A DNA stretch of 64,000 bases, from the NCBI RefSeq assembly GCF_002286735.1, contig NZ_NRTA01000008.1, positions 1 to 64,000 on the forward strand, given 5' to 3'. The position numbers and the translations under genes are program-made. Positions 1-20,442 of this stretch are shown here, in pieces. This stretch comes from Leptolyngbya sp. BC1307. Lineage in GTDB: Bacteria > Cyanobacteriota > Cyanobacteriia > Phormidesmidales > Phormidesmidaceae. A model generated the notes under the pieces. The model was not told the origin of the DNA. It ran no database searches and saw nothing but the letters and a program-made list of their open reading frames with translations. Every line of letters starts with the position of its first letter. Positions within the stretch are counted from its first letter, which is position 1.

Positions 1-475
1 CTGCCGGTAACTCCGTCAGCTGGTTGTAACTGAGGTCGAGCGTTTGCAGGCTGCTCAACTGCCCGATGTCTGCCGGTAACTCCGTCAGCTGGTTGTAACT
101 GAGGTCGAGCGTTTGCAGGCTGCTCAACTGCCCGATGTCTGCCGGTAACTCCGTCAGCTGGTTGTAACTGAGGTCGAGCGTTTGCAGGCTGCTCAACTTC
201 GCGACAATTTCTGGCAGCTCTGTAAACTGATTGCCATAGAGAAAGAGCGATCGCAACTCTGTCAACAGCCCAATCTCATCCGGTAGCGCACTCAAATTAT
301 TGCTGCGAGATTCTTCCTTTTTCTTATCCCAACGTCCCAAAACCAGCGTCTTCAAATTCGTCAGCTTGCCAATCTCCGGCGGCAGCTCGCTCAGGTTCTC
401 TCCCGATAAATCCAAAGTCGGGCGACCATCCGCCGCCGCTTCATCAATCAGCCTGAGCAATTCTTCCTGAGTCAC
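1..475 (-). CDS. Leucine-rich repeat protein, N-terminal part (3' end outside window)
   Basis: Read on the minus strand, the sequence encodes 23-residue leucine-rich repeats of the LPxxIGxLxxLxxLxLxxNxLxx type, so it probably forms a curved protein-binding surface. The last three visible repeats (positions 1-195) are nearly identical 69-bp units, which points to recent duplication or gene conversion. The N-terminus (TQEELLRLIDEAAADG) matches the start of cyanobacterial LRR proteins that often continue into Roc-COR GTPase or TIR domains; that part lies outside the window. I chose the GTG at 475 because the frame is closed by TAG at 502-500 and contains no ATG. The family call is firm; the full domain content is unknown. 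Confidence 0.8.
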   Translation of the reverse strand, partial: MTQEELLRLIDEAAADGRPTLDLSGENLSELPPEIGKLTNLKTLVLGRWDKKKEESRSNNLSALPDEIGLLTELRSLFLYGNQFTELPEIVAKLSSLQTLDLSYNQLTELPADIGQLSSLQTLDLSYNQLTELPADIGQLSSLQTLDLSYNQLTELPA

Positions 476-835: not shown

Positions 836-1195
836 ATGTCTGATCAACTACCAAGCAGCGTTCAATTCGTAAAACCTGTGCAGACAGTAAAGACAAAAGC
901 TCAAGTTCTATCGTCGCTGTATGAGCATCGTCAAAAGCTGCAAGACTTTGGAGTCGAGCGCTACGGGGTTTTTGGCTCCTTTGGACGCGATCGCAATATT
1001 CACCCCCTCAGCGACGTAGATATCCTGGTTTCTTTTACGCCAGAGAAAAAGACTTTTGACAACTTCATGCACCTCGGGTTTTTCTTAGAAGATCTGCTTG
1101 GCAGAACCGTCGACCTGGTAACCACTGAGTCATTAAGCCCACATATTGGCCCACATATTCTAAGCGAGGTAGAATATGTCTCTACAGGTTCGTGA
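836..1195 (+). CDS. MNT-domain nucleotidyltransferase antitoxin (MntA-like)
   Basis: A 119-residue minimal nucleotidyltransferase. The active-site signature is visible: GSF at residues 47-49 and DVD at 60-62, with 11 residues between GS and DVD (family consensus is about 10). In the MntA/HepT family the antitoxin transfers AMP to a tyrosine of the HEPN RNase and silences it. The next gene overlaps its 3' end by 20 bp and is the matching HEPN partner, but that toxin is frameshifted. The antitoxin itself looks intact. No good Shine-Dalgarno sequence precedes the ATG. Confidence 0.85.
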   Translation: MSDQLPSSVQFVKPVQTVKTKAQVLSSLYEHRQKLQDFGVERYGVFGSFGRDRNIHPLSDVDILVSFTPEKKTFDNFMHLGFFLEDLLGRTVDLVTTESLSPHIGPHILSEVEYVSTGS

Positions 1196-1595: not shown

Positions 1596-1624
1596 TTGAC
1601 GCCTACAAAATAAGACTGTACGCT
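1596..1624 (+). promoter_or_regulatory. Sigma70-type promoter of structured leader, copy A
   Basis: TTGACG (1596-1601) and TACGCT (1619-1624) are separated by 17 bp. The same two hexamers in the same order, with 18 bp between them, occur in front of leader copy B (17310-17339), so the promoter is conserved together with the leader. Confidence 0.65.
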
Positions 1625-1629
1625 ATTCG

Positions 1630-1812
1630 TCATAGTTGTTGCCGCGTGGAACCGTCGCAATTGCTCAACCGCTCGAAAATTTAGTCGCTGCCGCTGATTG
1701 CTTGGAACCAATCAACGACAGCTAGCCCACTGAACTGACAACAGCAGTCCAGGTGACTACGGCCATGATGCCATAGCCGCCCTGACTTTTAGTAAGTTTG
1801 GGCGGCTAAATT
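1630..1812 (+). ncRNA. Structured 5' leader with alternative hairpins, copy A (candidate cis-regulatory RNA)
   Basis: This segment lies between a promoter and the ORF at 1847 and has a diverged homologue at 17345-17530. Helices seen in both copies despite sequence change: TGATTG/CAATCA (1695-1700 with 1709-1714), matching GTTGG/CCAAC in copy B; and GGTGACTACGGC (1752-1763) with GCCATAGCCGCC (1770-1781), matching GGTTGTGG/CCACAGCC in copy B. The 3' arm of the second helix overlaps TAGCCGCCC (1774-1782), which can instead pair perfectly with GGGCGGCTA (1800-1808). That second hairpin is followed by AATTTTCG and then TTTTTT, so it looks like a terminator. Mutually exclusive pairing is the architecture of an attenuator or riboswitch. 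I do not recognise it as a known Rfam class. Confidence 0.6.
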
Positions 1813-1846
1813 TTCGTGCTTTTTTCAACCCCGCACTGAAAAAATC

Positions 1847-2188
1847 ATGAAAACCATTGCCTATCTCGCCAGCGATCTGCCCAAACTCAGTCAGCGCAAC
1901 GAACAGAGCCGTCTCTATCAGACCGATGCCGATCAGAGCAACGAGCCCGCACCGTTGACGCTACCGACACCGCTCCGCCCTACCCCAGCCGAAAGCCGTC
2001 CTCCCCGAGAAGAACTGCGCCACATTTTGCTAGGCAGTCCTGACGCCATTGAGCAGACCATTCACCTGCTCTATCGGCTGAACTACACAGAGCCAGGGCT
2101 ATGGAGCCCCATTACCGCAGTAGGCGATCAGCTCATCATCACCGCCGCGCAAGCAGAAGCGATTAGTCTGCTCAGGCGTGCGATGTAG
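1847..2188 (+). CDS. Short cyanobacterial ORF with conserved ILLGSP...EAISLLRR C-terminus
   Basis: A 113-residue protein of unknown function. The N-terminal half is low-complexity and Pro/Thr-rich. The C-terminal 55 residues (HILLGSPDAIEQTIHLL, then LWSP, then EAISLLRR) form a compact predicted alpha/beta unit. The same C-terminal block is encoded, without its N-terminus, at 17543-17713, so this is a repeated family within the genome. It follows a structured leader whose terminator-like hairpin ends about 35 bp before the start, so transcription attenuation probably controls it. The heptad-repeat ORF starts 11 bp before its stop codon. I cannot assign a biochemical role. Confidence 0.7.
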   Translation: MKTIAYLASDLPKLSQRNEQSRLYQTDADQSNEPAPLTLPTPLRPTPAESRPPREELRHILLGSPDAIEQTIHLLYRLNYTEPGLWSPITAVGDQLIITAAQAEAISLLRRAM

Positions 2189-2435
2189 GCTTGAGCGCAA
2201 GCTGCTACGCGAGAAGTGTGAGCTACTCAACGAAAAGCGCAAGCTGCTACGCGAGAAGTGCGAGCTGCTCAACGAAGAGCGCAAGCTGCTACGCGAGAAG
2301 TGTGAGCTGCTCGGGGAAAAGTGTAAGCTGCTGCGCGAGAAGTGCGAGCTGCTCGGGGAAAAGTGTAAGTTAGTGTTGCAGAAGGGCGAGTGGCTCTGTG
2401 AGAAGCGATCGCCCTTTGCACTCAATTTGTTTTAA
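2178..2435 (+). CDS. Heptad-repeat (coiled-coil) ORF
   Basis: An 85-residue ORF built of 7-residue units of the form (K/E)LLxEKx, about nine copies, encoded by a 42-bp tandem DNA repeat (two 21-bp halves). The leucine pair and Glu/Lys positions fit a parallel coiled coil, and Cys recurs at the heptad end. It begins with GTG overlapping the previous ORF by 11 bp, suggesting translational coupling. Because 21 is divisible by three, two other frames also stay open here, so the reading frame is not proven. Support comes from a decayed copy at 18394-18663, whose same frame gives the same heptads. Confidence 0.5.
   Translation: MRCRLERKLLREKCELLNEKRKLLREKCELLNEERKLLREKCELLGEKCKLLREKCELLGEKCKLVLQKGEWLCEKRSPFALNLF
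2196..2370 (+). repeat. 42-bp (2 x 21-bp) tandem repeat encoding heptads
   Basis: About four copies of a 42-bp unit (GCAAGCTGCTACGCGAGAAG core followed by a GAGCTGCTCAACGA-like half). Unit length and phase exactly match a 7-residue coiled-coil period. It is coding-type repeat DNA, not a CRISPR, since there are no unique spacers. Confidence 0.8.
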
Positions 2436-17309: not shown

Positions 17310-17339
17310 TTGACGCTTTTGAATGGGGGCTGATACGCT
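17310..17339 (+). promoter_or_regulatory. Sigma70-type promoter of structured leader, copy B
   Basis: TTGACG (17310-17315) and TACGCT (17334-17339) with 18 bp spacing: the same hexamers as in copy A. Confidence 0.6.
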
Positions 17340-17344
17340 GTTTT

Positions 17345-17530
17345 TTAGTGATTGCGCTTCTCGCAAGCTGCGGGAACCGGTGCGATCGCTAAACTGCCTC
17401 GAAAAATTTAGCCGCTACCGGCGTTGGGGTCCAGCCAACACCGATAGCTCGCCCCTAACACTGACTAACCAGTGAGAGAGGTTGTGGTCATTTTCCCACA
17501 GCCCCCCTGACTTCTGGCAAGTGTGGAGGA
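17345..17530 (+). ncRNA. Structured 5' leader, copy B (candidate cis-regulatory RNA)
   Basis: Diverged homologue of the 1630-1812 leader, sharing the promoter, the TCGAAAA-TTTAG(C/T)CGCT core and the GACAGCT/GATAGCT-like joint. Helices: CCGGT/ACCGG with GCTAAA/TTTAGC inside (17377-17420 region), GTTGG/CCAAC (17423-17427 with 17435-17439), and GGTTGTGG (17480-17487) with CCACAGCC (17496-17503). The last 3' arm can alternatively pair with GTGG (17523-17526) around an ACTT/AAGT mini-stem that both copies share. The gene behind it is truncated, so this copy may be decaying. It fills most of the spacer after leuA. Confidence 0.55.
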
Positions 17531-17542
17531 AGGCGATCGCTC

Positions 17543-17713
17543 CGCCACATTTTGCTCGGCCACCCCGAAGACGTGCGCCAGACGATCCATCTGCTGCACA
17601 CCCTGCACTATGCCGAAACTGTGCTGTGGAGCCCGGTTATGACCATAGAGGAGCCGCTAATGATTGCGCCTGCCCCCAGTGAAGCGATTAGCCTGCTGCG
17701 GAGGTTAGTCTAA
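17543..17713 (+). pseudogene. Truncated paralogue of the ILLGSP short ORF
   Basis: The frame reads HILLGHPEDVRQTIHLL, LWSPVM and EAISLLRRLV to TAA 17711-17713, clearly homologous to the C-terminal block of the ORF at 1847-2188. No start codon or N-terminal Pro/Thr-rich part lies between the leader and this block. Either the N-terminus was deleted, or translation begins at an internal codon. Confidence 0.7.
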
Positions 17714-18393: not shown

Positions 18394-18663
18394 CTACTCT
18401 GCGAGAAGCGTGAACGACTCGCAGAGTAGTGGGAACGACTCACAGAGTAGCGTGAACGACTTATAGAGAAGTGCGAGCTTCACCGCCACAAGTGCGAACG
18501 ACTCACAGAGAAGTGTGAGCTGCTTCGCCATAAGCACGAACGGCTCACAGAGAAGTATGAACGGCTCACAGAGAATCGTGAGCTGCTCGGTGAAAAGTGC
18601 GGGTTGCTCTGGCAGAAGGGCGATCGCTTCCCTGACCAGTGCGAGCTGCCATGTAAGCAGTAG
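18394..18663 (+). pseudogene. Decayed heptad-repeat ORF, copy B
   Basis: In one frame this stretch encodes about eleven heptads such as CERLTEK, CELLRHK and YERLTEN, matching the (K/E)LLxEKx heptads at 2178-2435, and ends in a related WQKG segment. Two TAG codons interrupt the first heptads (18424-18426 and 18445-18447 region). The underlying 21-bp DNA repeats are more diverged than in copy A. No promoter or start was found. The rest of the 18191-18837 spacer holds nothing else recognisable. Confidence 0.65.
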
Positions 18664-18837: not shown

Positions 18838-20442
18838 ATGGATAACGGCCAAAAGAAAAAGTTAGAGACTCAGCTTTGGAATATTGCCGATTCGCTGCGG
18901 GGCAAGATGAATGCCGATGAGTTTCGGGACTATTGTTTGGGGTTTATTTTTTATAAGTATCTGTCTGAGCGTCAGCATCTGTATGCGAATGGCATTTTGG
19001 CTGAAGATGAGATCGATTTTTTAGAGATTGATGAGGGCTCTGAAGCGGGGCAGGAGTATTTGGCGGCGCTGCGGGAGGAGTCGATTGAGACGCTGGGTTA
19101 TTTTCTGAAGCCGTCGGAGCTGTTTGGGGCGCTGGCGACGCGATCGCTGGGCAACCAAACCGATAAGGATGAGGTGAGCGACGAGGATTTGGAAAAAAGC
19201 TCGGTCTTCATTTTGGGCGATTTGGCGGATGTGTTGAGCAATATTGAGCGCTCGACGATGGGGAAGGAAAGTGAGGAGGATTTTGATCATCTGTTTGAGG
19301 ATCTAGATCTCACTTCGACGAAGCTGGGCCGCACGCCAAAGGCGAAGAATACGCTGATTGCGAAGATTTTGGTGCATCTGGATAAGATTGATTTTCGGCT
19401 AGAAGATACCGAGAGCGATGTGCTGGGCGATGCCTATGAGTATTTGATTGGGCAGTTTGCGAGTGGGGCGGGTAAAAAGGCGGGGGAGTTTTATACGCCG
19501 CAGCAGGTGAGTAAGGTGCTGGCGAAAATTGTGACGACGGGGAAGGATCGGCTAAAGGCGGTGTATGACCCGACTTGTGGATCGGGTTCGCTGCTGCTGC
19601 GGGTGGCGCGGGAGGTGACTTCTGTGGGCGATTTTTATGGGCAGGAGATGAACCGCACCACTTACAACCTGGCACGAATGAATATGATTTTGCACGGGGT
19701 GCACTATCGCAATTTTGACCTGCGGCAGGAAGATACGCTAGAGAAGCCGCAGCATGAGGGAATGCGGTTTGAGGCAGTGGTGGCGAATCCGCCGTTTTCG
19801 GCGAATTGGAGTGCGAGTGCGCTTTTTGAGAGTGATGATCGCTTTAGTCAGTATGGCAAGCTTGCGCCTAAGTCTAAGGCGGATTTTGCGTTTGTGCAGC
19901 ATATGTTGCATCACCTGGATGATAACGGCACGATGGCGGTGGTGTTGCCGCATGGGGTGCTGTTTCGCGGGGGGGCGGAGGGGCATATTCGGGAGTATGT
20001 GATCAGGGAGCGGAATTGGTTGGATGCGGTGATTGGGCTGCCTGCGAATATCTTTTATGGCACGAGTATCCCGACTTGTGTGCTGGTGTTTAAGAAGTGT
20101 CGGGAGCAGCCGGAAGATGTGTTGTTTGTGGATGCGAGTGCGCATTTTGAGAGGGCGAAGAGTCAGAACTTTTTGCGGGATGAGGATGTTGATAAGATTG
20201 TTGAGACTTATCGGGGGCGGTTAGAGGAGGAGAAGTATAGCTATCGGGCGGGGTTGGCGGAGATTGCGGAGAATGATTACAACCTAAATATTCCGCGCTA
20301 TGTGGATACGTTTGAGGAGGAGGAGCCGATTGATTTGGCGGCGGTGGTGCGGGAGTTGCGAGAGGTTGATCGGGCGATGGAAGAGACGGATCAGCTTATT
20401 CGCGGTTTTTGTGAGGAGTTGGGGATTGAGTCGCCAGTATGA
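18838..20442 (+). CDS. hsdM: Type I restriction-modification methyltransferase subunit
   Basis: A 534-residue N6-adenine methyltransferase. A helical N-terminal domain is followed by the AdoMet motif DPTCGSGSLLLRV (from residue 244) and the catalytic NPPF (residues 317-320), then a C-terminal helical part that contacts HsdS. It overlaps hsdS by ATGA. Its codons end mostly in G or T, unlike the C/A-ending codons from about 21.7 kb to hsdR, so the island looks assembled from different sources. Confidence 0.96.
   Translation: MDNGQKKKLETQLWNIADSLRGKMNADEFRDYCLGFIFYKYLSERQHLYANGILAEDEIDFLEIDEGSEAGQEYLAALREESIETLGYFLKPSELFGALATRSLGNQTDKDEVSDEDLEKSSVFILGDLADVLSNIERSTMGKESEEDFDHLFEDLDLTSTKLGRTPKAKNTLIAKILVHLDKIDFRLEDTESDVLGDAYEYLIGQFASGAGKKAGEFYTPQQVSKVLAKIVTTGKDRLKAVYDPTCGSGSLLLRVAREVTSVGDFYGQEMNRTTYNLARMNMILHGVHYRNFDLRQEDTLEKPQHEGMRFEAVVANPPFSANWSASALFESDDRFSQYGKLAPKSKADFAFVQHMLHHLDDNGTMAVVLPHGVLFRGGAEGHIREYVIRERNWLDAVIGLPANIFYGTSIPTCVLVFKKCREQPEDVLFVDASAHFERAKSQNFLRDEDVDKIVETYRGRLEEEKYSYRAGLAEIAENDYNLNIPRYVDTFEEEEPIDLAAVVRELREVDRAMEETDQLIRGFCEELGIESPV

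What the first reader, a model, noticed from the sequence alone, without database searches (positions are those of the whole stretch)
1847..2435. Module of short ILLGSP ORF plus heptad-repeat ORF, duplicated at 17.5-18.7 kb
Both loci carry leader RNA, the ILLGSP/EAISLLRR block and a 21-bp-periodic tract coding (K/E)LLxEKx heptads. Copy A is intact, with the two ORFs overlapping. Copy B has lost the N-terminus of the first ORF and has stop codons in the heptads. Repetition of the whole set suggests a genetic unit rather than chance neighbours. A regulated coiled-coil-forming protein pair is one possibility.
Basis: partly seen in the sequence, partly recalled or inferred. Interest (0 to 1): 0.7.

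Follow-up and report, generated by a model that had tools for sequence, protein, structure and literature searches.

The report
Multicopy RNA-led small-protein genes, cyanobacteria
The sequence belongs to a large, so far unnamed family of tiny cyanobacterial genes, up to about 80 copies per genome, nearly every one headed by the same elaborate folded RNA that looks like a switch for making the protein; the coiled-coil-like repeat next to it is not part of the unit.

Summary
Leader RNA, ILLGSP ORF and 21-bp heptad tract are all at the stated places, but only two of the three belong together. The ILLGSP ORF is one of 23 paralogues in this cyanobacterial genome. Up to 81 were counted in a relative, and 105 of 291 sampled genomes of the class have the family. 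It is absent from Pfam, NCBIfam and PHROGs. 21 of the 23 copies are preceded by the same ~180-205-nt leader: a promoter, a five-way-junction RNA closed by P1, and a hairpin P6 over the ribosome-binding site. No Rfam family matches. Base-pair covariation is strong in two subfamilies. P1 and P6 compete for one strand, so the leader most likely works as a translational switch; its trigger is unknown. In relatives, about 75-90% of these ORFs carry the leader, and 26 of 28 leaders found blind precede the ORF. One other cyanobacterium has the RNA core before a different, 47-copy small-protein family.

The heptad tract is not part of the unit: it occurs at 3 places in this genome, and a sister species without any cassette has it beside the same restriction-modification genes, with stop codons. 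Copy B is a deletion-broken cassette. The protein's function and the effector remain unknown.

The parts
1596..1624 (+). promoter of copy A (TTGACG-N17-TACGCT)
   Evidence: same box spacing seen by eye in the other cassettes
1671..1849 (+). leader RNA of copy A: P1 5' strand 1674-1684, P1 3' strand 1806-1816, junction hairpins P2-P5 between
   Evidence: model match 157.8 bits, E = 2.9e-34; covariation
1820..1844 (+). hairpin P6 (1820-1827 with 1837-1844) covering the ribosome-binding site just before the start codon at 1847
   Evidence: fold of each leader; pair counts in subfamily II
1847..2188 (+). small protein gene, 113 aa, subfamily I; conserved domain about residues 55-113
   Evidence: dN/dS 0.13-0.33 among paralogues
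2178..2435 (+). heptad ORF over a 21/42-bp tandem repeat (2194-2365): neighbour, judged not part of the unit
17310..17339 (+). promoter of copy B (TTGACG-N18-TACGCT)
17398..17530 (+). broken leader of copy B: P1 5' strand and P2-P4 kept, P5 cut, P1 3' strand and P6 missing
   Evidence: 68.8 bits, E = 5e-13 over 17398-17575
17531..17713 (+). ORF remnant of copy B: conserved domain only, no start codon or ribosome-binding site
18403..18575 (+). second heptad tract, with stop codons; goes with the type I restriction-modification block, not with the cassette

Best explanation
The unit is a stand-alone gene cassette: promoter, ~180-205-nt structured leader, small protein. Shown here: the leader folds into a P1-closed five-way junction, its pairs covary, a hairpin (P6) pairs with the ribosome-binding site just before the start codon, and in most cassettes the 3' strand of P1 overlaps the 5' strand of P6 so that both cannot fully form together. 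Inferred: the junction domain responds to something (a metabolite, an ion, or the small protein itself), and the trade-off between P1 and P6 opens or closes translation of the small protein, as in a translational riboswitch or an autoregulatory leader. Inferred: the protein (a compact beta-alpha-beta domain behind a variable N-terminus) is kept in many diverged copies that are gained and lost often. The heptad tract is an unrelated, genus-limited minisatellite.
For: Leader and ORF pair almost one to one. Covariation in two subfamilies with different P1 sequences. P6 over the ribosome-binding site; the region is less accessible than in 29 other genes of the window (0.30 against 0.50 unpaired, p = 0.01). 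P1 5' strand and P6 3' strand carry the same word and change together (5.5 against 3.4 re-dealt, 0/2000). Leader 95% identical between paralogues whose synonymous sites have dS near 1. Own promoter, convergent neighbours in 15 of 17 loci.
Against: No ligand, no expression data. In subfamily I, the window's own, P1 and P6 mostly abut, so competition is weaker, and accessibility is not low there. Some homologues lack the leader. In G053 the RNA core stands 140-370 nt upstream of another gene, mostly without P6. Re-dealing does not correct for relatedness.
Confidence: 0.62

Rival explanations
1. Autoregulation (a special case of the switch): the small protein binds its own leader and limits its own translation, like ribosomal-protein leaders; no small molecule is involved.
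For: The leader is tied almost exclusively to one protein family; the ends of the conserved domain are basic; the protein is small and compact.
Against: In G053 the RNA core goes with a different protein family. No known RNA-binding fold was matched.
Confidence: 0.25
2. The RNA is the active part of a spreading or selfish cassette (an RNP or a mobile element), and the protein serves the RNA or its movement.
For: 0 to 81 copies per genome with large differences inside one genus; similarity between paralogues usually runs from promoter to stop codon and no further; no clear shared positions between sister species; 8 of 23 copies lie near contig ends, 12% expected, p = 0.003; RNA core found with two protein families.
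Against: No terminal repeats, transposase or nuclease in the cassette; sites of integron attC type absent; copies are mostly diverged rather than recent; the covarying P6 over the start codon points to translation control.
Confidence: 0.12
3. One reading: leader, ILLGSP ORF and heptad ORF form one regulated module encoding a coiled-coil protein pair.
For: All three heptad tracts of this genome lie within about 0.7 kb of a cassette or remnant; the two ORFs overlap in copy A.
Against: Two of three tracts have stop codons; the tract is in G005, which has no cassette; 20 of 23 cassettes have no tract; no tract in 55 of 57 relatives.
Confidence: 0.03

Closest known systems
Glutamine riboswitch of cyanobacteria ahead of a small inhibitor of glutamine synthetase (review PMC6316151)
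   Same: Structured leader before a short cyanobacterial gene, thought to act on translation
   Different: No match to any Rfam family here, different junction, dozens of copies, unrelated protein
yjdF motif RNA (PMC4793209)
   Same: Riboswitch candidate almost exclusively tied to one gene of unknown function
   Different: Different RNA and protein; yjdF responds to azaaromatic compounds; here 20-80 copies per genome
Ribosomal-protein autoregulatory leaders (general knowledge)
   Same: Structured leader upstream of a small gene that may be controlled by its own product
   Different: Protein is not a known ribosomal protein; binding untested
HEARO / IscB omega RNA (general knowledge)
   Same: Structured RNA upstream of an ORF, many copies, found in cyanobacteria
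   Different: ORF is 77-113 aa with no nuclease domain; no Rfam match

Membership tests
Any described RNA family (Rfam 15, which includes the glutamine riboswitch and HEARO) | match to the family's covariance model | tested here: not met
   window at gathering threshold: none; five cassettes at relaxed threshold: only sub-threshold chance-like matches
Riboswitch (works like) | conserved covarying structure in a 5' leader of an mRNA | tested here: met
Riboswitch (works like) | alternative pairing that exposes or hides the ribosome-binding site | tested here: inconclusive
   met in sequence design for subfamily II and relatives, weaker in subfamily I; no experiment
Riboswitch (membership) | binds a ligand and changes expression | not testable with these tools
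   needs probing and reporter assays
Known protein family | match in Pfam, NCBIfam, PHROGs or solved structures | tested here: not met
Integron gene cassette | attC site with RYYYAAC and GTTRRRY core sites | tested here: not met
   both sites in only 2 of 21 leaders

The most novel reading that the evidence does not exclude
A new riboswitch-like RNA class of cyanobacteria that controls a whole multigene family of small proteins in parallel and has been taken up by at least two unrelated small-protein families, so that the RNA, not the protein, is the constant core of a multiplying cassette.
Probability: 0.4. Interest if true: 0.85.

Novelty: new variant of a known kind. Interest (0 to 1): 0.7.

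Why it matters
If right, it is an unregistered structured RNA class with hundreds of natural examples, unusually multiplied within single genomes. Because dozens of paralogues share one leader, finding the trigger would show what a widespread but unnamed cyanobacterial protein family responds to. The G053 case, where the RNA heads another protein family, gives a second handle on the signal.

Tried and rejected
Rfam scans at gathering and at relaxed threshold: nothing plausible. Protein libraries and PDB by sequence and fold: nothing; the model is of moderate confidence (mean pLDDT 69). Integron attC: core sites mostly absent, although what looks to me like an integron-type integrase tail lies upstream of two copies (not tested against a library). 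Functional coupling to neighbours: flanks are mixed (SecA, aquaporin, NACHT, TIR, caspase-like, type I R-M, transposase) and mostly convergent. Shared positions between species of the genus: no clear case, only a few loosely placed shared neighbour genes. Model R1 took only 16 base pairs because the automatic consensus was poor; R2 with an explicit structure served the later counts. The search for related loci with a mixed alignment failed. Literature searches gave no description of this RNA or protein, but the library lacks most subscription papers.

Full report
What was checked. The ILLGSP ORF (1847-2188), the overlapping heptad ORF (2178-2435), the second ILLGSP block (17531-17713) and the second heptad tract (about 18403-18575) are all present. 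Promoters of the form TTGACG-N17/18-TACGCT stand at 1596 and 17310.

Copy number. The conserved C-terminal block of the ILLGSP protein matches 23 places in the host genome. They fall into two subfamilies: I (ILLGSP ... EA[IM]SLLRR, 11 copies, including both window copies) and II (LFGS ... NEVMAILTKRV, 12 copies). Pfam, NCBIfam and PHROGs have no family for the members tested. Paralogue pairs have dN/dS of 0.13-0.33, so the frames are under selection as protein. Among 57 relatives the counts run from 0 to 81, and within the same genus they are 3, 2, 18, 1, 0 and 5. In a sample of 291 genomes of the class, 105 have the family. Named hosts include Leptolyngbya sp. Heron Island J and PCC 7375, Adonisia turfae, Leptolyngbya cf. 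ectocarpi LEGE 11479, Oscillatoria sp. CS-180 and cf. Phormidesmis sp. LEGE 11477. Plasmids, mostly of Nostoc-type cyanobacteria, carry it too; no phage record does.

The leader. Upstream of 21 of the 23 copies lies a leader of ~180-205 nt. A covariance model finds 22 leaders in the genome: 21 before the ORF and one broken, without ORF. The fold is a junction closed by P1, with hairpins P2 to P5, followed by hairpin P6, whose 3' side contains the ribosome-binding site and ends a few bases before the start codon. P1 has a different sequence in the two subfamilies (CGAAAATTTAG/CTAAATTTTCG in I, CAGAACTCAA/TTGAGTTCTG in II) but pairs in both. On 29 subfamily II sequences 89% of cells pair, with 80 double changes against 31.6 in shuffles and at most 30 in slid controls. 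On 13 subfamily I sequences 88% pair, with 41 double changes against 14.9. P6 has 9 against 1.8. The leader of copy A is 95% identical to that of its closest paralogue although synonymous sites of the ORF have dS near 1.

Switch design. In subfamily II and its many relatives the 3' strand of P1 and the 5' strand of P6 share four or five bases. The 5' strand of P1 and the 3' strand of P6 therefore carry the same word (CAGAAC, CAAAGC, CAGAGC, AGAACC) and change together from cassette to cassette: mean shared word 5.5 against 3.4 when re-dealt, 0 of 2000 (relatedness is not corrected for). Single folds show either P1 or P6 as best. This is what a translational switch looks like. In subfamily I the two helices mostly abut, and the ribosome-binding site is not clearly less accessible than in other genes. 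What is sensed is unknown.

Generality. Of 29 ORF-found relatives 22 have the leader, and of 80 more 70 have it (of the ten without, L162 and L179 begin at a contig end). Of 28 leader-found loci 26 are followed by the ORF, including divergent ORFs; one has a truncated ORF and one has another gene. Leaders of the same type occur in other families of the class. In G053 there are 27 leader cores, mostly without P6. By comparing the two position lists, 21 of them stand upstream of a different small protein with 47 copies in that genome, absent from the other three genomes searched; its resemblance to HTH proteins is weak. The RNA core is thus not bound to one protein family.

The cassette. Similarity between paralogues starts near the promoter and, in most pairs, ends at the stop codon. 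In 15 of 17 loci with a close downstream ORF that ORF is convergent, so the cassette is a stand-alone gene. Positions show no clear sharing within the genus. The ROK gene next to copy A is in five sister species with no cassette matched beside it. The structure prediction gives a beta-alpha-beta domain behind a low-confidence N-terminus, with no convincing match among solved structures.

The heptads. Heptad tracts are at three places in this genome, each within about 0.7 kb of a cassette or remnant, and weakly at three in two sister species. Two of the three have in-frame stops. In G005, which has no cassette, the tract is beside the same hsdM gene (98% identical) and again has stops. I read the tract as a 21-bp minisatellite that happens to translate into heptads; it is not a partner protein. 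That all three lie near cassettes is not explained.

Copy B. It is a decayed cassette: promoter, P1 5' strand and P2-P4 are present, then a deletion runs from within P5 to within the ORF, removing P6, the ribosome-binding site, the start codon and the N-terminus.

Judgement. Known here: multicopy family, conserved covarying leader, nearly one-to-one pairing, competing helices in most cassettes. Not known: the trigger, the protein's job, whether the protein acts on its own leader. I put the translational switch at 0.62, autoregulation by the protein (a special case of it) at 0.25, a primarily mobile or selfish role at 0.12; these overlap.

Noticed in passing
G053: L291, L295, L300, L303: The leader core stands upstream of a different small-protein family that has 47 copies in that genome; 21 of 27 leaders are so placed.
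   Followed up: partly
L057, L127, L128, L136, L137, L155, L197: Leaderless relatives of the ORF lie about 100-135 nt downstream of a 164-166-aa gene of DUF7662 plus HTH type.
   Followed up: partly
L014, L015 upstream of the leader: A remnant that reads like the tail of an integron-type integrase (YTHVLNRG...), by eye only.
   Followed up: no
whole genome G000: 8 of 23 cassettes lie within 1.3 kb of a contig end (12% expected, p = 0.003), which hints at repeats next to them.
   Followed up: no
L051: The leader of this copy seems to be interrupted by a gene that reads like a group II intron reverse transcriptase, by eye.
   Followed up: no
window 1-249: 69-bp perfect tandem repeat that looks like leucine-rich-repeat coding on the minus strand.
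   Followed up: no
window 836-1195: Nucleotidyltransferase-domain gene (Pfam NTP_transf_2) followed by an ORF of HEPN/MNT look, just upstream of copy A.
   Followed up: no
window 18838-20442: Type I restriction-modification methylase next to the second heptad tract, 98% identical DNA in sister species G005, which suggests recent transfer.
   Followed up: partly
L310, L314, L317 (G096): Leaders with a long extra segment inside hairpin P5.
   Followed up: no
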